DNA from: an uncultured Anaerolineaceae bacterium
GTDB lineage: Bacteria > Chloroflexota > Anaerolineae > Promineifilales > Promineifilaceae
Length of the DNA stretch: 11,132 nt
Direction: 5' to 3'
Assembly (NCBI GenBank): GCA_937967805.1
Contig: CALBTC010000537.1
Location: 1 to 11,132, forward strand
The position numbers and the translations under genes are program-made. The stretch's first letter is position 1. Each line of letters begins with the position of its first letter. Below are positions 1,431 through 11,001 of this stretch, one piece after another. Below the pieces are notes generated by a model. The model was not told where the DNA came from. It saw nothing but the letters and a program-made list of their open reading frames with translations, and made no database searches.

Positions 1431-2543
1431 ATGACAAAAGACGCAAGTAACAACGAACAAACCAACAGCGTCATTAACTGGTTGATTCAGCTTTGGCGTG
1501 GGGTGAGCGTGCCGCTAACGGCCGTTCTTCTGGCAGGCATCATCGGTTCCATTATTTTGTGGCTTTCAGACGCCAATCCCTGGGAAGCGTATACTGCCCT
1601 TTATCGAGGTTCCTTCGGCAGCGAAGCCGCCTTTGGCCGTACCCTGGAAAAAGCCACGCCGCTCATCCTGGGTGGCCTGGCGGTTGCTTTTGCTTTCAAG
1701 GCGGGCCTGTTTAACATCGGCGGGCAGGGTCAGCTGCTGATGGGGGCCATTATTGCCGGATACGTAGGCTTTGCCGTTACCGGACTCCCTTTCATTATCC
1801 ACATGCCGCTGGCGCTGCTCATTGGCAGCCTGATGGGCGCCCTGTTTGCCAGCATTGCCGGCGCGCTGCGCACCTACACCGGCGCGCATGAAGTCATCAC
1901 CACCATCATGCTCAACTTCGTGGCCATCAACATCACCGATTATTTAGCCGATGGCCCCTGGAAAGATACGGGCATCGTGGCCCGCACGCCGGCCATTGCT
2001 GAATCGGCCGCCATTCCCATCTGGGGCACGCTGCCCGCCGGCTTTTTTATTGCGGCGCTCATGGCCTTTGCCACCTGGTATCTGCTCTTCCGCACTACGC
2101 TGGGTTATGAAATCCGCACCGTGGGGTTAAATTCCAACGCGGCGCATTACGCCGGTATCAAAGTAGCCCGCATCATCATTTTAACGATGGCCATCAGCGG
2201 CTTTTTGGCCGGCATGGGCGGCGCGATTGAAACGCTGGGTGTGGTCGGCCGTTATCAGCCGGGCTTCAACACGGGTCTGGGCTTTGACGGCATCACCATC
2301 GCCCTGCTGGCCCGCACCAATCCGCTGGGCGTCATTCCGGCTGCGCTGCTGGTGGGGGCCATGCAGGCCGGGTCCAGCCAGATGCAGTTCGATGCCAACG
2401 TGCAGTCCCAGATTATTGATGTGATTCAGGCACTTATTTTGTTCTTTGTTTCGGCCGACATGATTGTGCGCTGGATTATCCGCACCCGCGCCGATGAGGC
2501 CGGCGGCGTGACCATCAGCAGCAGTTGGGGCAGCACAGGCTAG
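1431..2543 (+). CDS. nupP: Nucleoside ABC importer permease, NupP/YufP type
   Basis: This is one of two membrane subunits forming the translocation channel of the importer (BPD_transp_2 family, the branched-chain amino acid/ribose/nucleoside permease fold). The protein has 370 residues. It has a short charged N-terminus, a membrane segment near 27-45, and then the family stretch TPLILGGLAVAFAFKAGLFN and NIGGQGQLLMGA (about 76-106). Cytoplasmic coupling-loop candidates are GAHEVITTIMLNF (151-163) and GYEIRTVGLN (225-234). Several more hydrophobic segments run to residue 351. The start at 1431 is chosen because AGGTGG stands just upstream. A longer reading from 1350 would translate through half of the palindromic repeat. 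The stop is followed after 11 bases by the partner permease. Nucleoside specificity is inferred from the BMP protein in the same operon. Confidence 0.92.
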   Translation: MTKDASNNEQTNSVINWLIQLWRGVSVPLTAVLLAGIIGSIILWLSDANPWEAYTALYRGSFGSEAAFGRTLEKATPLILGGLAVAFAFKAGLFNIGGQGQLLMGAIIAGYVGFAVTGLPFIIHMPLALLIGSLMGALFASIAGALRTYTGAHEVITTIMLNFVAINITDYLADGPWKDTGIVARTPAIAESAAIPIWGTLPAGFFIAALMAFATWYLLFRTTLGYEIRTVGLNSNAAHYAGIKVARIIILTMAISGFLAGMGGAIETLGVVGRYQPGFNTGLGFDGITIALLARTNPLGVIPAALLVGAMQAGSSQMQFDANVQSQIIDVIQALILFFVSADMIVRWIIRTRADEAGGVTISSSWGSTG

Positions 2544-2554
2544 AGGAGATATTC

Positions 2555-3574
2555 ATGGACTCGACAATGACACAAACCAGGAGTAAAGGCTGGTCAATTT
2601 CCTTGCGCTCAATTGGGATTGTGCTGGCGGTAGGCGTGCTGATCGCTATTGTGTATGGTTACATTACGAACCCGGCGGTGACAACGGCCGTTCTCGCCTC
2701 CAGCTTGCGCCAATCCACCCCACTGGTGCTGGGCGCACTGTGCGGCCTCATTGGTGAACGCTCCGGCATTGTCAACATCGGCATTGAGGGCCAGATGTTG
2801 ATGGCCGCTTTTATTGGCTTTTTGGCCAACGTGTACACCGGCAACCTGCTCCTGGCCGTGCTTGCCGGCGTTGGCGCCGGCGCACTGCTGGGGGCCTTTT
2901 TGGGCCTCATGTCCATTGGCCTAAAAATGGACCAGATTATCGGTGGGACGGTGATCAACATTCTGGCCTTGGGCCTGACCAGCTTTTTTTACCAGGCCGG
3001 CCTGACCACCGAAGGAAAATTGCAGCCTATCAGCTTTGGCGCCCTGGCCGACATTCCACTGATTGGTCCGATTTTATTTAACAATCCGCCCATCACCTAC
3101 GCCACCTTGATTTTAGTGGTACTGGTCCATTTTGTGCTGTTTCATACTCGCTGGGGCCTGCGCACCCGCGTCATTGGCGAGCATCCCAGCGCCGCCGACA
3201 CGGTAGGCATCAATGTTCATATGATGCGCTACGTTAACATAACAATAGCTGGGGCCATTGCCGGCCTGGGCGGCGCCTACTTGACGCTGGAGGCGGTTGG
3301 CTCTTTTGAGCGGGCCATGACAAACGGCCGTGGCTTTGTGGCCCTGGCGGTGATGCTTTTTGGTAAACGCACCCCCTTTGGCGCCTGGGGTGCGGCGCTG
3401 CTGTTTGGTTTTGCCACGGCGCTGCAAACGCAGCTCCAATTCGGCGGACAGATCGATATTCCGCACCAATTCATCGGGATGCTGCCTTACGTGCTCACCA
3501 TTTTGGTGCTGGCCGGATTTGTCGGCCGCAGCCGCGACCCGCAGGCGCTGGGCCAACCCTATGAAACAGAATAG
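2555..3574 (+). CDS. nupQ: Nucleoside ABC importer permease, NupQ/YufQ type
   Basis: This is the second channel subunit, in the same permease superfamily as its upstream neighbour but the shorter, distinct partner. It has 339 residues and about eight to ten hydrophobic segments. The diagnostic stretch is STPLVLGALCGLIGERSGIV followed by NIGIEGQMLMAAF (about 54-86). A coupling-loop candidate KMDQIIGGTVIN lies at 124-135, and a second loop GLRTRVIGEHP at 201-211. The start at 2555 follows AGAGGAG (2542-2548), which overlaps the stop codon of the first permease and so points to coupled translation. An upstream in-frame ATG at 2525 lies inside the previous gene and lacks a ribosome site. ATG at 2567 (Met5) is a weaker alternative. 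The gene is followed 18 bases later by the ATPase gene. Confidence 0.92.
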   Translation: MDSTMTQTRSKGWSISLRSIGIVLAVGVLIAIVYGYITNPAVTTAVLASSLRQSTPLVLGALCGLIGERSGIVNIGIEGQMLMAAFIGFLANVYTGNLLLAVLAGVGAGALLGAFLGLMSIGLKMDQIIGGTVINILALGLTSFFYQAGLTTEGKLQPISFGALADIPLIGPILFNNPPITYATLILVVLVHFVLFHTRWGLRTRVIGEHPSAADTVGINVHMMRYVNITIAGAIAGLGGAYLTLEAVGSFERAMTNGRGFVALAVMLFGKRTPFGAWGAALLFGFATALQTQLQFGGQIDIPHQFIGMLPYVLTILVLAGFVGRSRDPQALGQPYETE

Positions 3575-3592
3575 GGCAATTAAGGATCACAC

Positions 3593-5116
3593 ATGAGCGA
3601 AAACACAAACCAGATCGTCCTCCAGGCAAAAGGAATCACCAAGCGCTTTCCCGGTGTGCTGGCCAATGACAGCGTCGATTTAACGCTGCGTCACGGCAAA
3701 ATTTTGGCCCTACTCGGTGAAAACGGCGCGGGCAAAAGCACGCTGATGAACATGCTGTACGGCCTTTATCATCCCGATGAAGGTGAAATCTGGATTAAGG
3801 GAGAAAAAGTAGCGCTAAAAAATCCGCGCGATGCGATTGATCGCGGCGTGGGCATGGTGCACCAACATTTTCAGCTGGTGCCGGTGATGACGGTGACGGA
3901 AAACGTGATGCTGGGGTCGGAGGTGACGCGCAACGGCCGTCTCGATATGCGCACTGCCCAAAAGCGAGTGTTAGAACTGTCCCAGCAGTACGGACTCAAG
4001 GTCGATCCCACAGCCATCGTGGAAGATTTACCCGTCGGCACACAGCAGCGGGTGGAGATTGTGAAGGCCCTGTACCGCCACGCCGACATTTTGATTCTGG
4101 ACGAGCCAACGGCCGTTCTCACCCCCCAGGAAGCCACCGAACTGTTCCGCATCATGCGCGAGCTCACCGAGCGTGGCGTCTCCATCATCTTTATTACCCA
4201 CAAGCTCAAAGAAGTACTGGCCATCGCCGACGATATTGCCGTGCTGCGCGGCGGCCGCATGGTGGGCACGGCCGATCCCAAAACGGCCACCCAGGCCACC
4301 CTGGCTGAATTAATGGTGGGCCGAAAAGTAATTTTGCAGGTGGAAAAAGATGAACCGCAGCCCAAAGAGGTCGTCTTGAGCGTGCGGGATTTACATGTTT
4401 TGGATGATCGGGGGCATACGGCCGTCGAAGGCGTCGATCTGGAAGTACGTGCCGGCGAAATTGTAGGCATCGCCGGGGTGCAGGGAAACGGACAGCGCGA
4501 ACTCGTCGAAGCCCTTACCGGCCTGCGGCCTGTTGCCGGAGGCAGCATCACCATTACTGGGCAGGACAGCACTCATTTTTCGCCGCGGAAGGTAACCGAA
4601 TTAGGCGTGGCTCACATCCCGGAAGATCGGGAAAAGCACGGGCTGGTCATGGCCTACACCGTGGCCGACAACATGGTGCTGAACAATTATTACCAGAAGC
4701 CGTATGCCAGTGGCCCAGTGATGCACCAAGAAGCGATTGACGCGCACGGCACGGAGTTGGTAAAGGAATTCGACGTGCGCACGCCCGGCATTCATACGGC
4801 GACCCGTACCCTTTCCGGAGGAAACAAGCAAAAAGTGATCGTGGCCCGCGAATTTTCTCGCCCGATCAAGCTGCTCATCGCCGCCCAACCCACGCGGGGC
4901 ATTGATGTCGGTTCCATCGAATTCATCCACAACCAGATTGTGGCCCAGCGCGACCGGGGCATTGCTGTGTTGGTGGTTTCTGCGGAATTGGACGAAATTT
5001 TGGGATTGGCCGATCGGGTAGCGGTGATGTTCGACGGCCGTATCGTCAAAACCTTACCCATCGCCGAAGCCACCCGCGAGCGCATCGGCCTGCTCATGGC
5101 CGGTTCCGAAGAATAG
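3593..5116 (+). CDS. nupO: Nucleoside ABC importer ATPase with two fused ABC domains, NupO/RnsA type
   Basis: This cytoplasmic ATPase powers the importer. It has 507 residues, the usual length for the double-domain sugar/nucleoside class. Domain 1 (about 8-250) is complete: Walker A GENGAGKST (42-50, Lys48), Q-loop Gln91 in HQHFQL, a signature variant LPVGTQQRVEI (146-156), Walker B ILILDEPT with Asp170 and Glu171, and switch His203. Domain 2 (about 260-505) has no true Walker A; GVQGNGQREL at 295-304 lacks GK[ST]. Its signature LSGGNKQK (407-414) is intact, but the Walker B end reads IAAQPTRG, so both acidic residues are replaced. Such asymmetry is typical of this family and implies one fully active ATP site. 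The start at 3593 follows AAGGA at 3582-3586. The gene closes the transporter operon. Its stop is followed by a palindromic repeat. Confidence 0.95.
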   Translation: MSENTNQIVLQAKGITKRFPGVLANDSVDLTLRHGKILALLGENGAGKSTLMNMLYGLYHPDEGEIWIKGEKVALKNPRDAIDRGVGMVHQHFQLVPVMTVTENVMLGSEVTRNGRLDMRTAQKRVLELSQQYGLKVDPTAIVEDLPVGTQQRVEIVKALYRHADILILDEPTAVLTPQEATELFRIMRELTERGVSIIFITHKLKEVLAIADDIAVLRGGRMVGTADPKTATQATLAELMVGRKVILQVEKDEPQPKEVVLSVRDLHVLDDRGHTAVEGVDLEVRAGEIVGIAGVQGNGQRELVEALTGLRPVAGGSITITGQDSTHFSPRKVTELGVAHIPEDREKHGLVMAYTVADNMVLNNYYQKPYASGPVMHQEAIDAHGTELVKEFDVRTPGIHTATRTLSGGNKQKVIVAREFSRPIKLLIAAQPTRGIDVGSIEFIHNQIVAQRDRGIAVLVVSAELDEILGLADRVAVMFDGRIVKTLPIAEATRERIGLLMAGSEE

Positions 5117-5124
5117 ACCTCTAC

Positions 5125-5184
5125 AGACCCTAAGGGTTTGGCCTGTTACATTTAACAACTAGCAAATCCAAACCCTTAGGGTCT
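5125..5184. repeat. Palindromic intergenic repeat, AAACCC...GGGTTT family (copy 2)
   Basis: AGACCCTAAGGGTTTGG (5125-5141) and CCAAACCCTTAGGGTCT (5168-5184) are a perfect 17-bp inverted repeat around a 26-base AT-rich interior. Each arm is itself a near-palindrome around AAACCC/GGGTTT. Size and layout match the element at 1334-1396, so they look like two members of one dispersed family. The element fills most of the gap between the ATPase stop and the pheA start. It could fold in RNA as a read-through barrier, but it has no U-tract. Confidence 0.8.
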
Positions 5185-5201
5185 AAACTTGCGATACTAT
5201 C

Positions 5202-6041
5202 ATGACCGAAACCCAACCCATTGTCGCTTTCCAGGGCGAACCCGGCGCCTATTCCGAGCAGGCCGTGCGTGAGCATTTTGGCACCGAAACAGCCACCCTG
5301 CCCTGCCGCACCTTCACCGAGATGTTTGACGCCGTGCACAACGGCCGTGCCAGCCAAATTATGCTGCCCGTGGAAAATTCGCTGGCCGGTATGGTCATCC
5401 CTGCCTACGACATGCTTGTTGACCACGATCTGCGCGTGCAGGCAGAAGTCATCGTGCGGGTGGAACACTGTCTGATGGCTCCCGCCAGCACGCAGCTTAG
5501 CGACATCACCCATGTGATGTCCCATCACCAGGCGTTGGCCCAATGCGAGAACAACATCCGCCGCCTCGGTCTTATTCCTGTCGATCATTACGATACGGCC
5601 GGCGCCGCCCGCGATCTGGCCAACAACCCCCAGGCAGGCATGGCGGCCATCGCCAGCACCCTGGCCGCAGAAACGTACAATCTGGAAATTTTGGCCCACA
5701 ACTTTGAAGATATGGATTTCAACTTCACCCGCTTTTTTGTGCTGGGCAAGCTGGACCCACCCCGGCAAGAACCATGTAAAACCTCCATCATCTTCACCAC
5801 GCGGCACGTCCCCGGCGCCCTGTACACCGTGCTGGGCGAACTGGCCGATCGCGGCATCAACCTCACCAAAATCGAATCCCGTCCCCGGCGCAACCGCCCC
5901 TGGCATTACCGCTTCTTTGTTGATTTTGAAGGGCACGAGGATGACGAATCCGTGCAGGAAGCGATGCTGGGCATCCTGAAACAATCCTCTTTTTTGCAGG
6001 TGCTTGGCTCCTACCCCATGGCCAAAATGCCCACGCAATAA
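5202..6041 (+). CDS. pheA: Prephenate dehydratase (PDT catalytic domain plus ACT domain)
   Basis: The enzyme converts prephenate to phenylpyruvate with loss of water and CO2, the committed step to phenylalanine, in the cytoplasm. It has 279 residues, the normal length for a monofunctional bacterial enzyme with no chorismate mutase domain. The PDT part shows IVAFQGEPGAYSEQA (7-21), PVENSLAG (56-63), SHHQALAQC (107-115, usually SHPQAL) and DTAGAA (131-136). The catalytic TRF is at 176-178 in NFTRFFVLG. The regulatory ACT domain begins at about 191 (KTSIIF). It contains GALY (205-208) and ESRP (225-228), the motifs linked to phenylalanine feedback inhibition. The start is firm: an in-frame stop lies at 5184-5186 with no alternative start between. 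No Shine-Dalgarno sequence precedes it. A weak -10-like GATACT at 5193-5198 allows an almost leaderless transcript, which is speculative. Confidence 0.96.
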   Translation: MTETQPIVAFQGEPGAYSEQAVREHFGTETATLPCRTFTEMFDAVHNGRASQIMLPVENSLAGMVIPAYDMLVDHDLRVQAEVIVRVEHCLMAPASTQLSDITHVMSHHQALAQCENNIRRLGLIPVDHYDTAGAARDLANNPQAGMAAIASTLAAETYNLEILAHNFEDMDFNFTRFFVLGKLDPPRQEPCKTSIIFTTRHVPGALYTVLGELADRGINLTKIESRPRRNRPWHYRFFVDFEGHEDDESVQEAMLGILKQSSFLQVLGSYPMAKMPTQ

Positions 6042-6055
6042 CCCTTAATTGCAAA

Positions 6056-6156
6056 TTGTCATTCTGAACGCAGTGAAGAATCCCACCGGAGATACTCTTT
6101 CAAAGGCCTTGTCCGCAATGGGTAAGGTTTAGAGTTCAAGGCGTTCAGCATGACAA
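6056..6156. repeat. MITE-like element with TTGTCATTCTGAACGC terminal inverted repeats
   Basis: TTGTCATTCTGAACGC (6056-6071) and GCGTTCAGCATGACAA (6141-6156) match as inverted ends at 15 of 16 positions. They bound a 101-bp element with no coding potential. The left end continues as AGTGAAGAATCC, and from memory this whole motif resembles a short intergenic repeat seen in many unrelated bacterial genomes. It lies 14 bases after the pheA stop, between convergent genes. No clear target-site duplication is evident. Confidence 0.7.
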
Positions 6157-6192
6157 CTATTGGATCGTTGTAATTATGCAGCTTCTCTGGCT

Positions 6193-6245
6193 GTGGCCGG
6201 TGTCCTCACCGTGCCACCCGGCGGCTCGGTCTGAAGACCGGCCGC
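6193..6245. repeat. Inverted pair of REP-like hairpins (BIME-like)
   Basis: Two adjacent hairpins are separated by three bases. The first (6193-6217) pairs GTGGC with GCCAC and CGGTG with CACCG around the loop TCCT, with T6212 bulged. The second (6221-6245) pairs GCGGC with GCCGC and CGGTC with GACCG around TGAA, with T6226 bulged. Reversed and complemented, the second aligns with the first at 18 of 25 positions. Two of its stem differences are compensated on the opposite arm. The unit lies between convergent genes, 24 bases beyond the stop of the glycosyltransferase gene, and may act as a two-way transcription end. Confidence 0.75.
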
Positions 6246-6269
6246 AGCACCTGTATAAATACGGTTCGT

Positions 6270-9065
6270 TTAGTTTTCAACAGTGATTGATTCCAGCAAA
6301 ACCGCATCGCTTTCAGAGCCGTTGGGCTGCACAGCCTGGAGGCGCTGGCCGGTTTCAGCAATGTAGAGGCCAATTTCCAGCCGGTAGCTGCCCGTTGGCG
6401 TGTCGGGCGGCAGCGTGATCTGGTAGCTGTCGGTCACGACCTCGTCACTCAGCCAGCGGCTGGTGGGATACTGGTTTTGCTGCGGCATCACGTCTTGCTG
6501 CCACAGGCAGGGATTGCAACTGCCGTCAGCTTGCAACAGGTGGATAAATACAGTGTAGTCGTTACTTGGTTCTGTTTGTGCCTGCCAGATGAGGTCAAGC
6601 TGGTACTGGTTCGCATTATCGAGGGAGGCAAGATTGTAGCCCAGCAGCTTGATTTCGTTGCCAAAGGTGGCGGGATACGGCCGTGCCACAGCCGGCACCG
6701 TAAACTTGCGCTCTGTTACCTCCACGCGCAGGGGACCAAGATCTGACGTGGCCAGCGTCGCGTCCGCCCCATCCAAAAAGCGGGCCAGCAAACGGTACTC
6801 CCCGGAGGGGATGTCGTTGGGCAGCCGCACCGTTTGCCAGTCGATAAGAAATTGGGGCGTTTGCCAGCTTGTGAATGGATATGTATCATGCACCGGCTGG
6901 GTATTGCTCAGGATGCGCCCCACGTTGTTGCCGCCCATCAGCTCCAGCCGGATGCTGGTGTAAGGCACAAATTCTGTGGCATACCACCACAGCGCCAGGT
7001 CGATGCTTTCGCCCGTGGCGGCTTCCAGCGCACCGCGCGTCACGCCCAACAGTTCCAGCTGAGGGCGAATGGTTTGGTTAAGGACAATGGGCGGTTGGGG
7101 AAAATTACGCGGTGGTTCGCCGGGAAGCACGGTGATGTTTTCAATCAGGTAGGTGTCGCCGGCGTAACGGCCATTTTCATCCAGCCGGGGCAAACGCGCG
7201 CCGCTGCTGGCAGAAAACAGCCCCAGACGCAGCCGGTAACTGCTGCCCAGCGGCGCACCCGCAGGCACCTCGATTGCCACGCGCTGCACAATCGTTTCCC
7301 CCCGCGACCATTGTGCTGAAGGATAAGCAAACGTCTCTTCCTGGCTCCAGCGATGTCCCCAATCATCTTCAAAATGGATGAAGGGAGTGAAATCGGCCGT
7401 TTGGTCAAAATTCACCTGCCAGTAAAGAAAAAGGAGCAGCGGTTCACCAGCGGTTGCCTGACCTACCTCATACCCCTTCAGAGTAATGGCATTGCCAAAA
7501 TTTACGGACAGGGGCAGAGCAGGTGTAATTGTTGGCGCATTGTCCATCTCATAAGCAAGAAACGCCACGCTGCCATCGGGAGCAAACGGTGTGGGCAACA
7601 GGTCTGCTTCGGAAAAGTAAGGGATGGCCCATTCAGGCAGTGGGCTGTTGTGGGGAAAGATGTAGACTGCTTCCTCACGGGCGGGGAAAACCACCGCCTG
7701 GCTTTGCGGCAGCCATTTTACCTGCTCATATTTGTCGCTCAGGTAAGCCAGCGTGGGATGTTGGTAATGCAGCGCCGAGACGTAAATGTTTTTGTTCTCA
7801 GTGTCTAATTGATCCAGGAAATCGGCCACGGCCGTTAAATCCCCATCCGTTTCGTAGAAAACGGCCGTCTCCTGCCCCCACACCCGAAAATAAAGCCGCT
7901 CCGTGAGCAATCCGCCCACCATCAAGGCCAAAACGCCCACCATAAGCACCGCTGACGTCAGCTCGATCCGCTTGAACTGCCGGCCTAAATCATTGACAAA
8001 AACCATCAAGCCCACGCCGGGCAAATAAAAAACGAAGGGAATCAAGCCAATGGCGCGTAAGTTGCTAGGAACAATCTCATTGACCGCCAGGGCCGTGGGC
8101 AATAGCATGACGAATGGTGCCAGCAGCAGCAGCAGCACGCTTGCCCGCTGCCAGTCGGCCTGCAAAGCGCGCCAGCGCCAGATGAGCATCATCCAGCCCA
8201 CCAACAGCAGACCACCCCAAAACCAGCCGAACAACGGCCGTTCCGGCAAATTAAAGCGTATGTAGGGATCGCCCACCAGAAAGAACATTTGCAGCGAACG
8301 CAGGATGCTCTCCCCCAGGGTCAATGCCGTCTCGTCGGGGGCGACCTGGCTGATGCGCACCCAAAACGCATCCGGGTTGGCCACAAAAAAGCCCAGCAGT
8401 GGGGCCAACACAACGAGGGCTACGCCGCCGACCAGCAGCAACTGCAAGCCGCGCTTACGCCATTGGCCGCCAAACAGCAGCGGCAGGCTGGCCATGAGCA
8501 GCAAAACGGGAAAAAGGCGCGCGGCCAGGTAGGTGTAAGCCGTCAAACCTAAGAAAACGCCGCTCAGCAGCAGCCATTTGCGCTGATCCAGCCGAACGCC
8601 ACGCAGCAGCGCCGCGACCGTTAGCGTTTGCAGCAGCGGCTGGGTGATGGCCCGAAAACCCAGATGGCTAAACAGCAAATGCCAGAAGCTAATCGCCAGC
8701 AGCGCCGCCGCCACCAGCGCCACCCGCCGGTCGCGGAACAGTTCCAGTCCCAGCCAGTAAACGGCCGCAGCCGTGACAATGCCCACCAACGCGGCCGTCA
8801 GCCGCAGGGTAAATACGGAATCGCCCAGCAAGCGCATCAGACCACCTGCCAGGTAGAAAAAGAGCACTTCTTTACCCGTATAGCTGGTGATGAAAAGCGG
8901 CCGTTCCCCCTGAAGCCCAATTTCACTGGCCAGGATACCGTTGGCAGCTTCGTCGTAGTGCACACCGGCGGGCACCTGGGACAAATCGCTCAGGCGCAAT
9001 GTAGCGGCTGTCATCAGGCAAAAGAGCATGAAGAGCAAAGCGTGACTGTGTTGAAGGCGTCGCAT
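6270..9065 (-). CDS. GT39-like (GT-C fold) integral membrane glycosyltransferase with three repeated C-terminal beta domains
   Basis: This is a polyprenyl-phosphate-sugar-dependent glycosyltransferase of the PMT/ArnT superfamily, acting at the outer face of the cytoplasmic membrane. Acceptor and sugar are unknown. It has 931 residues. Residues 9-390 carry about ten hydrophobic segments. The first external loop has HYDEAANG (36-43), whose Asp38-Glu39 fits the acidic catalytic pair of GT-C enzymes. SHLGFRAITQPLL (133-145) and NLRAIGLIPFVFYLPG (335-350) are typical of bacterial family members. Residues 390-520 form a soluble linker region. Three similar beta-rich modules follow at about 521-647, 658-783 and 797-930. 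Each has an ITLKGYEV-like opening, an aromatic LxWQ-like strand and a P-x-G-x-YRL-like ending. Cys850 and Cys853 may form a disulfide. The ATG start has no clear ribosome site. Family assignment is firm, function is inferred. Confidence 0.85.
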   Translation of the reverse strand: MRRLQHSHALLFMLFCLMTAATLRLSDLSQVPAGVHYDEAANGILASEIGLQGERPLFITSYTGKEVLFFYLAGGLMRLLGDSVFTLRLTAALVGIVTAAAVYWLGLELFRDRRVALVAAALLAISFWHLLFSHLGFRAITQPLLQTLTVAALLRGVRLDQRKWLLLSGVFLGLTAYTYLAARLFPVLLLMASLPLLFGGQWRKRGLQLLLVGGVALVVLAPLLGFFVANPDAFWVRISQVAPDETALTLGESILRSLQMFFLVGDPYIRFNLPERPLFGWFWGGLLLVGWMMLIWRWRALQADWQRASVLLLLLAPFVMLLPTALAVNEIVPSNLRAIGLIPFVFYLPGVGLMVFVNDLGRQFKRIELTSAVLMVGVLALMVGGLLTERLYFRVWGQETAVFYETDGDLTAVADFLDQLDTENKNIYVSALHYQHPTLAYLSDKYEQVKWLPQSQAVVFPAREEAVYIFPHNSPLPEWAIPYFSEADLLPTPFAPDGSVAFLAYEMDNAPTITPALPLSVNFGNAITLKGYEVGQATAGEPLLLFLYWQVNFDQTADFTPFIHFEDDWGHRWSQEETFAYPSAQWSRGETIVQRVAIEVPAGAPLGSSYRLRLGLFSASSGARLPRLDENGRYAGDTYLIENITVLPGEPPRNFPQPPIVLNQTIRPQLELLGVTRGALEAATGESIDLALWWYATEFVPYTSIRLELMGGNNVGRILSNTQPVHDTYPFTSWQTPQFLIDWQTVRLPNDIPSGEYRLLARFLDGADATLATSDLGPLRVEVTERKFTVPAVARPYPATFGNEIKLLGYNLASLDNANQYQLDLIWQAQTEPSNDYTVFIHLLQADGSCNPCLWQQDVMPQQNQYPTSRWLSDEVVTDSYQITLPPDTPTGSYRLEIGLYIAETGQRLQAVQPNGSESDAVLLESITVEN

Positions 9066-9145
9066 GGCGGGATTTTATCGCTGGAAACGCAGTTCGTCGA
9101 TTGGCGTTATTTGACAGTCACGTTTATTTGTGAAATTAAGAACTT

Positions 9146-9198
9146 GCGTAGGTTTCGCGTAGGTTCGGCGTAGGTACGGCGTACAGACCAGCGTAGGG
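9146..9198 (+). promoter_or_regulatory. Array of five GCGTA(GGT) direct repeats with 11-bp spacing; candidate operator
   Basis: GCGTA begins at 9146, 9157, 9168, 9179 and 9191, so the spacing is 11, 11, 11 and 12 bp. The first three units extend to GCGTAGGT, the fourth is degenerate (GCGTACAG) and the fifth reads GCGTAGGG. The units therefore fall on one face of the DNA helix. The last one ends six bases before a candidate extended -10 box. Winged-helix activators of the OmpR/PhoB and SARP type are known to bind direct repeats with this spacing close to the -10 box, so an activator site is the leading reading. The protein that binds is not in the window. The array might also act on the divergent glycosyltransferase gene, which starts 80 bases away. 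Confidence 0.6.
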
Positions 9199-9201
9199 AA
9201 G

Positions 9202-9212
9202 TGGTATAGAAT
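9202..9212 (+). promoter_or_regulatory. Candidate extended -10 promoter element
   Basis: TGGTATAGAAT contains an extended-TG arrangement (TG, one base, TATAGA at 9205-9210) and also an overlapping TAGAAT (9207-9212) that matches the -10 consensus at five of six positions. The expected -35 position (9182-9187, TACAGA) is poor and lies inside the repeat array, as expected for an activator-dependent promoter. Transcription would start near 9217-9219. Confidence 0.45.
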
Positions 9213-9217
9213 CTTCT

Positions 9218-9332
9218 GCGAAGGGTAAAAATCTCTTCTTCTTCTCCTCCTTTTAACGAGGGTCAGGTTTCGGCGTTCCTGACTCTCTAAAAAATAACCG
9301 GGCTGGCAACATTGCCAGCCCGATTTTTTTTT
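9218..9332 (+). ncRNA. Candidate small RNA of about 115 nt with anti-Shine-Dalgarno tract and terminator
   Basis: Between the candidate promoter and a strong terminator there is no ATG or GTG start on this strand, so the segment is either a non-coding RNA or an untranslated leader of murJ. It holds a pyrimidine tract at 9229-9254. That tract includes CTCCTCCTTTT, which is complementary to a Shine-Dalgarno sequence. A hairpin follows with GAGGGTCAGG (9258-9267) pairing with CCTGACTCTC (9278-9287), one G-U pair, and a ten-base loop. The terminator hairpin comes last. A single-stranded C/U-rich patch followed by hairpins is the common layout of small RNAs that block ribosome-binding sites. Transcription here is inferred, not shown. 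Confidence 0.45.
9299..9332 (+). terminator. Strong intrinsic terminator upstream of murJ
   Basis: CGGGCTGGCA (9299-9308) pairs perfectly with TGCCAGCCCG (9313-9322) around a four-base loop, followed by A and nine consecutive T residues (9324-9332). This is a textbook rho-independent terminator pointing toward murJ, whose ATG is only 28 bases further on. No gene on this strand ends nearby (pheA stops 3.3 kb upstream), so it must terminate either the candidate small RNA or a murJ leader. Confidence 0.92.
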
Positions 9333-9346
9333 ACCGTCACGTCGCG

Positions 9347-9352
9347 TATAAT
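9347..9352 (+). promoter_or_regulatory. Perfect TATAAT -10 box for a probably leaderless murJ mRNA
   Basis: TATAAT ends eight bases before the ATG at 9361, so transcription should begin within a base or two of the start codon. No Shine-Dalgarno sequence precedes that ATG. The -35 position overlaps the T-run of the terminator (9324-9329) and matches TTGACA poorly. Confidence 0.55.
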
Positions 9353-9360
9353 CCTCGCCC

Positions 9361-11001
9361 ATGCCTGCAGAAAACGACAATAAGTATGATCCTGAAATTG
9401 TAACGGCCGTTCCCAGCAGCCATTCACTGGTTATGCGTGCTGCAGGACTGGTTAGCGCAGCTGTTTTATTGAGCCGAATTGTGGGGTTAGTGCGTGATAT
9501 TATCATTAAGGCCAATCTGGCTGTGACAACCCTTCCGGCTGAGGCGTATGAAATCGCGGTGCGCCTTCCCGAAACTATTTTTTTGATTATTGCCGGCGGG
9601 GCAATTGGCTCAGCGTTTATCCCTACCTTTGCCGCCTATTTTGAGCAGGATGACAGCGAAGGTGGCTGGCGGCTGTTTTCTAACGTCATTAACCTGATAA
9701 CGGTGGTTGTCACGACCGTTTCCCTTCTCAGCATTCTATTTGCTCCCGATCTTGTCATTTTGTTGGCCAATGAAAAAGTGGCTGCTAACCCGGAACTACT
9801 GCCGCTAACGGTGCGCCTAATGCGCATCATGCTGTTGTCACCTATCATTTTTGGAGCCAGTGGCGTGATTATGGGGGCGCTTAATGCCCGGCAACATTTT
9901 TTGCTGCCGGCACTGGCCCCCACTGTTTACAACATTGGCATTATTGCTGGCGGCTTGTTGTGGCCTGCAAGCGAACCAGAGGAAGCAGCCATGGGGTTTG
10001 CTGTAGGTACGGTGGTTGGCGCACTGGGGCATATTGCGGTGCAATTACCTGGGCTATGGCAGAAAAAGGCGAAGTATACGGCCGTCTTTTCCCTACGCGA
10101 TCCCGGCGTCAAACAAGTGCTCAAATTGATGTCTCCCCGTGTGCTGGGATTGTCCTTTAGTGAAGTGAATAAATTTCTCATTATCGTGCTCACCAATCCG
10201 ATGGTGACCGGCAGCTTACCAGCCTTAAATGCGGCCTTTCGGCTAATCATTATGCCACAGGGATTCATTGGGCAAGCATTGGGCATTGCGGCGTTTCCTA
10301 CGCTTTCTACTTTAGCAGCGCGTGGTGCCTATGAAGAAATGCGCCGGATTCTGGCCAATTCTCTACGTATTGTACTGTTTTTAGGGCTGCCGTTTTCGGC
10401 CATCTTCTCAATTTTGAATCAGCCTGTTGTGTCGCTGCTGTTTGAATGGGGCATTATGGGTGACGAAGATATTGCCTTGATAAGCTGGGCACTGTTATTT
10501 TATGCCATAGGCTTGCTCCCCTTACTCGCTTTGGAGGTTATTGCCCGGGCATTTTATGCGCTCAGCGATACCTTGACGCCAGTTTTAGCAGGTGGCGTGC
10601 AAATTCTCATCATGTGGGTGTTGAGTCTTTGGTTTAGCCAGACAATTTTCCCCCAACAAGGCTGGCTGCCCTTAGGTGGATTGGCATTAGGTTTTAGCAT
10701 TTCGAATATCGTTGAAGTGTTGCTGCTGCTATGGCTGCTACGGCGCAAGTTAGGTGGCATCCAAGGTGAATCGCTGCTGAAAGGTTTGTGGCGAATGAGT
10801 GCGGCTACTTTGCTAATGGCAGGCGGTATGTGGTTAACGCAATTAAACTTACCTTCACCTACGGGACTAAGGCAATTACTAATGCAATTAATTATTGTAG
10901 GCGGTCTAGGGGGTGCGATCTATCTACTTACCTGCGCCGGGCTGCGGCTTGAGGAACTTAATCAACTATGGCAATACGGCCGTCGCCGCCTCAACCGTTG
11001 A
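9361..11001 (+). CDS. murJ: MurJ/MviN lipid II flippase
   Basis: This membrane flippase moves lipid II, the peptidoglycan precursor, across the cytoplasmic membrane (MVF family of the MOP exporters). It has 546 residues and many hydrophobic segments in the pattern of the 14-helix family. The signature SRIVGLVRD lies at 38-46, keeping the two arginines (39 and 45) that match essential Arg18 and Arg24 of E. coli MurJ. GGAIGSAFIPTF is at 79-90. By eye, E. coli Asp39 aligns with Glu61, and the Arg52 position is hydrophobic here. An in-frame stop at 9349-9351 makes the ATG at 9361 the longest possible start. Met25 (9433) is an alternative that would remove a hydrophilic N-terminal tail. The gene looks more AT-rich than the importer and pheA genes. 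It stands alone, behind its own control region. Confidence 0.93.
   Translation: MPAENDNKYDPEIVTAVPSSHSLVMRAAGLVSAAVLLSRIVGLVRDIIIKANLAVTTLPAEAYEIAVRLPETIFLIIAGGAIGSAFIPTFAAYFEQDDSEGGWRLFSNVINLITVVVTTVSLLSILFAPDLVILLANEKVAANPELLPLTVRLMRIMLLSPIIFGASGVIMGALNARQHFLLPALAPTVYNIGIIAGGLLWPASEPEEAAMGFAVGTVVGALGHIAVQLPGLWQKKAKYTAVFSLRDPGVKQVLKLMSPRVLGLSFSEVNKFLIIVLTNPMVTGSLPALNAAFRLIIMPQGFIGQALGIAAFPTLSTLAARGAYEEMRRILANSLRIVLFLGLPFSAIFSILNQPVVSLLFEWGIMGDEDIALISWALLFYAIGLLPLLALEVIARAFYALSDTLTPVLAGGVQILIMWVLSLWFSQTIFPQQGWLPLGGLALGFSISNIVEVLLLLWLLRRKLGGIQGESLLKGLWRMSAATLLMAGGMWLTQLNLPSPTGLRQLLMQLIIVGGLGGAIYLLTCAGLRLEELNQLWQYGRRRLNR

What the first reader, a model, noticed from the sequence alone, without database searches (positions are those of the whole stretch)
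1518..10983. HIP1-like overrepresentation of the palindrome ACGGCCGT
I count 15 exact copies in 11.1 kb. A simple base-composition estimate at about 57% GC gives about 0.2-0.3. They occur in six genes of unrelated function, on both coding strands and in all three reading frames (Thr-Ala-Val, X-Gly-Arg, X-Arg-Pro). About half of the CGGCCG hexamers I noticed carry exactly the A...T flanks, so the octamer, not just the GC-rich core, is favoured. Cyanobacterial HIP1 (GCGATCGC) is the known parallel: a dispersed palindrome of debated function, possibly tied to methylation or repair. I know of no described equivalent with this sequence.
Basis: partly seen in the sequence, partly recalled or inferred. 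Interest (0 to 1): 0.8.

Follow-up and report, generated by a model that had tools for sequence, protein, structure and literature searches.

The report
HIP1-like genome-wide palindromes in Chloroflexota
A short palindromic DNA word is repeated thousands of times through the genomes of a group of Chloroflexota bacteria, kept in place across species, written into their proteins, and swapped for a different word in some relatives, much like the unexplained HIP1 word of cyanobacteria.

Summary
The window has 15 ACGGCCGT (shuffle mean 0.18; codon-shuffle mean 1.7). Its closest genome has 11,907 in 8.1 Mb. In that genome's order 31 of 56 hold at least 1,000; of 279 sampled class members outside it, none. 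Positions persist: 14 of 15 identical in a relative at 83% DNA identity, against 28% of control octamers. In G305, 632 of 688 coding places that allow the octamer carry it and Thr-Ala-Val is 7-fold in excess.

Beyond the finding: (1) dialects. TCGGCCGA (two genomes), GCGGCCGC (one) and TGCCGGCA (one) replace it; others enrich only CGGCCG. (2) Every dialect sits in a symmetric skew, G-rich 5' and C-rich 3', over about 25 bp, weak or absent at control palindromes and weak at HIP1.

No cytosine-methyltransferase family or Vsr tracks the word; flanking divergence is normal. I favour per-site selection for an unidentified dimeric DNA-binding protein (0.5). Methylation-linked repair and uptake-driven spread remain rivals.

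The parts
1518..1525 (.). ACGGCCGT site in permease 1 gene (1350-2543 +)
   Evidence: identical in L001
2684..2691 (.). ACGGCCGT site in permease 2 gene (2525-3574 +)
   Evidence: identical in L001
3324..3331 (.). ACGGCCGT site in permease 2 gene
   Evidence: identical in L001
3933..3940 (.). ACGGCCGT site in ABC ATPase gene (3593-5116 +)
   Evidence: identical in L001
4109..4116 (.). ACGGCCGT site in ABC ATPase gene
   Evidence: identical in L001
4418..4425 (.). ACGGCCGT site in ABC ATPase gene
   Evidence: identical in L001
5034..5041 (.). ACGGCCGT site in ABC ATPase gene
   Evidence: identical in L001
5341..5348 (.). ACGGCCGT site in prephenate dehydratase gene (5202-6041 +)
   Evidence: identical in L001
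6677..6684 (.). ACGGCCGT site in PMT_2-like gene (6270-9065 -)
   Evidence: identical in L001
7828..7835 (.). ACGGCCGT site in PMT_2-like gene
   Evidence: identical in L001
7861..7868 (.). ACGGCCGT site in PMT_2-like gene; the only one of 15 not identical in L001 (ACGGCCGC there)
8234..8241 (.). ACGGCCGT site in PMT_2-like gene
   Evidence: identical in L001
9403..9410 (.). ACGGCCGT site in MurJ gene (9361-11001 +)
   Evidence: identical in L001
10078..10085 (.). ACGGCCGT site in MurJ gene
   Evidence: identical in L001
10976..10983 (.). ACGGCCGT site in MurJ gene
   Evidence: identical in L001

Best explanation
It is a highly iterated palindrome (HIP) of the same kind as cyanobacterial HIP1, found in an order of Chloroflexota. 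Shown: thousands of copies per genome; copies kept at the same positions between species; most places where the protein sequence allows the octamer carry it; lineages differ in the word they use (ACGGCCGT, TCGGCCGA, GCGGCCGC, TGCCGGCA); every dialect sits in a symmetric G-to-C skew of about 25 bp on each side; divergence beside the sites is normal. Inferred: each copy is favoured on its own by weak but uniform selection (log-odds about 5 per site, rough), because a dimeric DNA-binding or DNA-processing protein reads the octamer together with its skewed surroundings. A change in that protein's recognition of the outermost base pair would start a new dialect, after which old sites decay and new ones fix. 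Neither the protein nor what it does for the cell (chromosome organisation, repair or recombination) is identified.
For: Whole-genome counts of four dialects. Retention in 1,294 of 1,425 pairwise comparisons with identical amino acids between groups of ACGGCCGT genomes (control octamers 0.18), and 0 of 116 in G100, G187 and G314 (controls 0.08, 0.10, 0.18). Saturation 632 of 688 in G305; by independent ascertainment 13 of 16 against 0 of 16 in G100. Flank skew 0.149 (se 0.003) at 2,230 carriers against 0.010 (se 0.008) at 292 non-carriers with the same coding possibilities. Skew in all dialects and beyond the empirical null of palindromic hexamers. Flat divergence in flanks argues against a local mutator. 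In G305+G240 saturation does not fall near another site beyond 30 bp, so the pressure acts per site there. C-methyltransferase families patchy, Vsr in 8 of 56.
Against: No binding protein was identified and no binding data exist. The skewed flanks are not more conserved than elsewhere except weakly at positions 3 and 4 (0.112 and 0.134 against 0.152), which is odd for a large protein footprint. No 10.5-bp periodicity in A genomes. In G100 frames 1-2 saturation falls with crowding (71 of 146 below 200 bp, 84 of 111 at 400 bp or more), and in the second A-genome set it is low at 30-60 bp (14 of 24 against 72 of 88 at 400-800 bp), as a density-based or uptake model would predict. CGGCCG more than 45 bp from any ACGGCCGT also has a little skew (0.030, z 5.1), so the skew is not tied strictly to the full octamer. 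Selection and biased conversion cannot be told apart by these data.
Confidence: 0.5

Rival explanations
1. Methylation-linked repair (Elhai's model): an orphan methyltransferase modifies the core, and a methylation-directed mismatch repair ratchets near-misses into the full word.
For: PMC4390886 states that all its cyanobacterial genomes with highly overrepresented words have at least one putative methyltransferase for them (section 2.5.3), although a passage lists four HIP1-rich strains without a recognisable CGATCG enzyme. One-off losses here are concentrated at the first/last base (34 of 76), as for HIP1. Core CGGCCG is shared by three dialects and the hexamer-only genomes.
Against: PF00145 in 26 of 56 genomes only, absent from many high-copy ones. 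Five high-copy genomes (G307, G173, G309, G319, G326) have no PF00145 match and best PF01555 E-values of only 9.5e-10 to 5e-4. GCGGCCGC contains no A, so adenine methylation cannot be general. The A...T and T...A flanks create no GmeC. No C>T excess at one particular C in decay. Vsr rare. Weak point: the genomes are largely MAGs of unstated completeness.
Confidence: 0.2
2. Uptake- or recombination-driven spread: the word is a DNA-uptake or recombination-promoting signal, so alleles carrying it are preferentially copied between cells.
For: Dialects and saturation resemble a drive. Mild even spacing (CV 0.89) and a crowding effect in G100, and a hint of the latter in the second A-genome set.
Against: Palindromic, whereas uptake sequences are not (passage in PMC1939737). 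Coding and intergenic density of the same order. No even spacing in G305+G240 (CV 1.39) or the other A genomes (CV 1.22), and no fall of saturation with crowding beyond 30 bp in G305+G240. Competence genes were not examined.
Confidence: 0.15
3. Selection against unprotected near-miss sites by a restriction-like nuclease that spares only the exact word.
For: In G305+G240 six of nine core one-offs are at 0.33-0.48 of their rate in G100. GCCGGC nearly absent in G187 and G157.
Against: Avoidance alone cannot raise Thr-Ala-Val from about 58 to 320 per 100,000 residues or fill intergenic DNA. The other three core one-offs are not depleted (1.18-1.35), and the mirror test for TCGGCCGA in G100 shows no general depletion (core one-offs 0 to 16 times the other genome).
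Confidence: 0.05
4. Codon usage, amino-acid composition or G+C produce the excess.
For: 9 of 15 window copies are in frame 0, Thr-Ala-Val.
Against: Codon shuffles give a seventh to a fifteenth of the count in relatives. Intergenic copies are of similar density in most samples. Relatives of similar G+C (G314, G100, G308) have 14, 85 and 198 copies genome-wide.
Confidence: 0.02

Closest known systems
HIP1 (GCGATCGC) of cyanobacteria
   Same: GC-rich palindromic octamer, about 440 to 2,100 per Mb in the 28 genomes where ACGGCCGT is 34-85% of CGGCCG against 300-2,700 per Mb for HIP1 (PMC4390886 Table 2); coding, intergenic and all frames; one-off losses at the outer base. Saturation measured here for HIP1 on an A. 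variabilis plasmid: 188 of 323. Weak flank skew at HIP1 (0.032, z 5.1, highest of 25 palindromes at positions 3-25).
   Different: Different phylum and core (GGCC, not GATC); no universal C-methyltransferase family; flank skew about 2.6 to 6 times stronger at the octamer dialects. At positions 7-25 HIP1 (0.024) is second to HIP-free CGATCG (0.029), so the cyanobacterial signal is only suggestive.
Alternate cyanobacterial HIPs (TCGATCGA, GGGATCCC, GGCGCC, rCCGGy, GCsGC; Elhai 2015)
   Same: Related genomes replace the word by another; some keep the core and change the outer base.
   Different: There the exceptional words are described as sporadic. Here one order of 56 genomes holds four octamer dialects, one of the three minor ones (TCGGCCGA) in two genomes, each above 3,600 copies, plus hexamer-only genomes.
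DNA uptake sequences (Pasteurellaceae, Neisseriaceae)
   Same: Dispersed short overrepresented words; lineage variants exist (recalled).
   Different: Not palindromic and more frequent in non-coding DNA than expected (passage in PMC1939737).
Chi sites
   Same: Overrepresented recombination-related octamers (recalled).
   Different: Chi is oriented and non-palindromic (recalled); no helicase-nuclease link was tested.

Membership tests
Highly iterated palindromes (HIP, as a class) | Palindromic word overrepresented genome-wide at hundreds to thousands per Mb | tested here: met
   G305 15,031 in 7.2 Mb; 31 of 56 order genomes at least 1,000 copies; 7 to 15 times the codon-shuffled count in samples of eight relatives
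Highly iterated palindromes (HIP, as a class) | Dispersed in coding and intergenic DNA, all reading frames | tested here: met
   intergenic/coding density ratio 0.55 (G001) to 1.16 (G317) in eight relatives; the window itself has no intergenic copy
Highly iterated palindromes (HIP, as a class) | One-base deviations concentrated at first/last position | tested here: met
   34 of 76 one-off losses at position 1/8; outer variants enriched 2.5 to 12.9-fold in G305+G240 against G100, but the mirror comparison in G100 does not show it (outer variants 0.32-0.76)
Highly iterated palindromes (HIP, as a class) | Conserved beyond neutral expectation | tested here: met
   14 of 15 against 28% of 1,841 octamers; 1,324 of 1,471 against 5,968 of 16,413 (pairs overlap)
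Highly iterated palindromes (HIP, as a class) | Methyltransferase able to methylate the word present in the genome | tested here: inconclusive
   PF00145 in 26 of 56; PF01555 in 52 of 56, above cut-off in 45; both patchy; specificity cannot be read from these searches; completeness not stated
HIP1 sensu stricto | GCGATCGC in a cyanobacterium | tested here: not met
   Different word; closest records are Chloroflexota MAGs
DNA uptake sequence | Non-palindromic, enriched outside genes | tested here: not met
   Palindrome; density per kb coding/intergenic 2.01/1.39 in G305 and 1.54/1.65 in G100
DNA uptake sequence | Promotes uptake of own DNA | not testable with these tools
   needs a culture
Vsr/VSP-type repair hotspot | Vsr endonuclease present | tested here: not met
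   8 of 56 genomes

The most novel reading that the evidence does not exclude
HIPs in Chloroflexota and cyanobacteria are one general class of genome element: an octamer core inside a symmetric G-to-C skewed surround of about 60 bp, read by a still unknown conserved protein and not by a methyltransferase. Changes in that protein's specificity make whole genomes swap thousands of sites and measurably rewrite the tripeptide content of the proteome.
Probability: 0.3. Interest if true: 0.92.

Novelty: new variant of a known kind. Interest (0 to 1): 0.82.

Why it matters
HIP1 has been unexplained since 1995 (date from citations in the papers seen) and, as far as the searches show, was discussed only in cyanobacteria. 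A second phylum with several dialects in one order gives a natural experiment: whatever reads the word must differ between G100, G308, G187, G314 and their ACGGCCGT relatives. It questions the rule that a matching methyltransferase must be present, adds a measurable property (the flanking skew) that any mechanism must explain, and shows a DNA word biasing amino-acid choice across a proteome sample.

Tried and rejected
Extended inverted repeat or cruciform: partners at -k/+k pair no more often than their marginals. Gyrase-like wrapping: no 10.5-bp signal in A genomes, only a small one in G100 G+C content. Local mutagenesis: divergence beside sites is flat. Repeat elements as the source of the skew: the three dispersed hairpins looked at contain no HIP. 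Universal m5C or N4/N6 methyltransferase: patchy. Vsr: 8 of 56. In-situ flank switching in G100: in the grid (columns with at least two HIPs) no column has TCGGCCGA in G100 and ACGGCCGT in a relative; one column (PER1 675) does mix dialects, with ACGGCCGT in eight genomes, TCGGCCGA in G317 and G073, and GCGGCCGC in G318. Short-range exclusion below 30 bp: seen in G305+G240 (23 gaps against 42.8 expected) but hardly in the other sets (16 against 20; 19 against 21), so not claimed; G305+G240 also has an excess of gaps of 30-50 bp (87 against 37.4), part of it local tandem copies. Codon-usage O/E of one-offs is confounded by the Thr-Ala-Val excess and was not used.

Limits. Pairwise retention counts and the carriers re-use orthologous sites of related genomes and are not independent. 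Saturation includes places that became permissible because of the word; the independent set is small (16 places). ORFs were called by a simple length rule. Samples for G308, G187, G314 and the hexamer genomes are 10-50 kb. Some genomes lack some genes in the alignments. CCGGCCGG was not counted genome-wide. In one search one cross-control is slightly above zero (TCGGCCGA-permissible non-carriers in A genomes 0.020, se 0.004). cannot show absence in incomplete MAGs.
Full report
OBSERVATION. The window has 15 ACGGCCGT, against 0.18 in dinucleotide shuffles and 1.7 in codon shuffles. 29 CGGCCG occur, 15 with A...T flanks. All 15 lie in six of the seven genes named by Pfam, in all three frames. 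The window's genome is not held. The nearest record found is L001, a MAG titled Anaerolineaceae bacterium NAT123 (96% protein identity).

GENOME SCALE. Counts in whole genomes of six relatives: 11,907 in 8.1 Mb, 11,524 in 5.8, 6,147 in 6.2, 2,984 in 3.0, 9,134 in 5.9, 6,466 in 4.1; the same letters read backwards give 403, 218, 71, 55, 202, 123. In 298 genomes drawn from the class, 11 have at least 1,000 copies, and all 11 reappear in the order list. Of the 279 class genomes not in that list the highest count is 430. In the order, 31 of 56 have at least 1,000. In three of these 31 (G157, G287, G210) the octamer makes up only 5-15% of CGGCCG; in the other 28 it is 34-85%. The order carries no name in the tool; record titles among the enriched loci read Anaerolineaceae, Anaerolineae, Anaerolineales, Ardenticatenaceae, Chloroflexi or Chloroflexota.

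DIALECTS. Several genomes of the order with few ACGGCCGT turned out to use other words. Whole-genome counts: TCGGCCGA 9,414 in G308 and 7,668 in G100, 68% and 79% of their CGGCCG. GCGGCCGC 12,040 of 13,814 CGGCCG in G187. TGCCGGCA 3,665 in G314, half of its 7,315 GCCGGC; it has only 14 ACGGCCGT and 447 CGGCCG. G157, G287, G331-G333 and G210 have 19,809-25,568 CGGCCG of which none of the three symmetric flanks counted exceeds 15% (C...G was not counted); in G157 that is one per about 195 bp. Other motif-poor genomes of the order (for example G073, G278, G311) show no dominant palindromic octamer in 16-20 kb samples. A tree of three transporter proteins places G100 inside the ACGGCCGT genomes (nodes 74-100), so its word is best read as a replacement. 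The root of that tree is arbitrary (G314), and G073, without a dominant word, also falls inside (node 91).

CONSERVATION. Window against L001 (83.2% identity over 10,737 aligned bases): 14 of 15 sites identical, and 14 of L001's 17 in the aligned part; controls 28% of 1,841 GC-matched octamers (overlapping), 7 of 13 other NCGGCCGN, 0 of 9 GGCGCC, 4 of 20 GCCGGC, 5 of 14 TGGCCA and 1 of 5 GCGCGC with flanks. Codon alignments of the operon and neighbours: where amino acids are identical, ACGGCCGT is retained in 1,294 of 1,425 comparisons between groups of ACGGCCGT genomes, 124 of 127 and 78 of 78 within groups; controls 0.18, 0.42, 0.33. In G100, G187 and G314 it is retained in 0 of 35, 0 of 46 and 0 of 35 (controls 0.08, 0.10, 0.18); in G073 in 21 of 53 (control 0.21). 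At the Thr-Ala-Val of the ATPase column 543 (Walker-B region, recalled) all 21 ACGGCCGT sequences carry it, and so does G073. Sixteen genome pairs aligned by blastn: 1,324 of 1,471 against 5,968 of 16,413 controls.

SATURATION AND PROTEOME IMPRINT. In G305, 632 of 688 coding places that permit the octamer carry it (328 of 338 for Thr-Ala-Val); G240 289 of 323, G304 179 of 217, G001 98 of 129, G318 125 of 141, G250 95 of 111, G317 114 of 146. In G100, 551 of 733 for TCGGCCGA and 5 of 223 for ACGGCCGT. Taking codon use in G100 as neutral, the log-odds in G305 are about 5.6, 5.2 and 5.6 in frames 0, 1, 2 (my arithmetic; inflated by non-synonymous gains). Places chosen because both a G100 protein and its homologue permit the word: 13 of 16 carriers against 0 of 16 in G100; the mirror test for TCGGCCGA gives 6 of 10 in G100 and 1 of 10 in the others. 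Thr-Ala-Val stands at 169-332 per 100,000 residues in seven ACGGCCGT samples (expected 38-48) and 58 in G100 (expected 50); Ser-Ala-Asp/Glu at 297 in G100 (expected 66) and 21-72 elsewhere. HIP1 on an A. variabilis plasmid is also well filled: 94 of 124, 59 of 93, 35 of 106; smaller samples of two other cyanobacterial plasmids give 26 of 41 and 20 of 59. So high saturation is shared with HIP1, not a peculiarity of this order.

FLANKING SKEW. On each strand the 5' side of the site is G-rich and C-poor: G 50% and 56% at positions -3 and -4, fading by about 30 bp, with a faint tail to 100 bp. It is seen at 55 intergenic sites too. No sustained skew appears at CGGCCG with neither the A nor the T in place (n 216), GCCGGC (297), TGGCCA (236) or GCGCGC (234), though CGGCCG of any flank more than 45 bp from a HIP shows a little (0.030, z 5.1, n 443). 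At places with equal coding possibilities, carriers have mean (G-C) per base 0.149 (se 0.003, n 2,230) and non-carriers 0.010 (se 0.008, n 292); in G100 0.083 against -0.002. Every dialect has it: 0.187 G308 (n 29), 0.121 G187 (n 42), 0.103 G314 (n 57), and 0.028-0.050 around CGGCCG in five hexamer genomes. The window's own 15 sites give 0.114 (se 0.032). HIP1 in 450 kb of cyanobacterial plasmids: 0.032 (se 0.006, n 289), highest of 25 palindromes at positions 3-25 but only about 2.4 null standard deviations out, and second to HIP-free CGATCG at positions 7-25; suggestive, no more. The base next to the octamer also differs between genomes: mostly A in window, G001, G318, G250, G002; C in G304, G305, G240; G in G317; A or T in G100 and G308; C in G187.

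MECHANISM. Divergence next to shared sites equals that far away (0.14-0.17 against 0.152; 0.112 and 0.134 at positions 3 and 4). The process is therefore neither a local mutator nor a long constrained footprint; the skew looks like a preference about where sites are gained or kept. One-off losses are mostly transitions (60 of 76) with no favoured cytosine. PF00145 is in 26 of 56 genomes and PF01555 in 52 (45 above cut-off), both patchy; G307, with 14,867 copies, has no PF00145 and only a 4.6e-4 PF01555 match. Vsr is in 8 of 56. Spacing is not even in G305+G240 (CV 1.39), nor does saturation fall near another site there beyond 30 bp. In G100 there is mild evenness (CV 0.89) and a fall with crowding in frames 1-2, and the second A-genome set dips at 30-60 bp (14 of 24); this is evidence for a density- or uptake-based rival. 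DNA around 33 methyltransferase loci in ACGGCCGT genomes has 152 copies against 196.6 expected, so possibly mobile DNA is only a little poorer. I conclude that each copy is favoured individually, most simply because a symmetric protein reads it. That last step is inference.

LITERATURE. PMC4390886: abstract, sections 2.2, 2.3, 2.5.3, 3.4 (part 1) and passages read. PMC6604393, PMC1939737, PMC4060949: passages only. PMC10269773: one passage in its reference list. Xu 2018 is not held; its claim of selection on HIP1 is taken from a passage in PMC6604393. No paper on such a word in Chloroflexota turned up, judged from the listings; most subscription papers are not covered.

Noticed in passing
   Followed up: partly
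G187 and G157 whole genomes: GCCGGC is nearly absent: 51 in 8.0 Mb and 132 in 4.1 Mb, as if strongly avoided.
   Followed up: no
G314 whole genome: CGGCCG only 447 in 4.0 Mb while GCCGGC is 7,315: the core itself is different in this genome.
   Followed up: partly
window about 200-285: The Bmp lipoprotein has a Glu/Met-rich low-complexity linker after its lipobox-like Cys (read from the translation).
   Followed up: no
L025: Record titled Pleurocapsa minor (a cyanobacterial name) sits among Chloroflexota matches at 65% identity; possibly a mislabelled MAG.
   Followed up: no
G073, G296, G250, G240, G005, G317, G006, G139: All 10 Vsr matches lie within about 2 kb of a PF00145 methyltransferase match on the same contig.
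   Followed up: no
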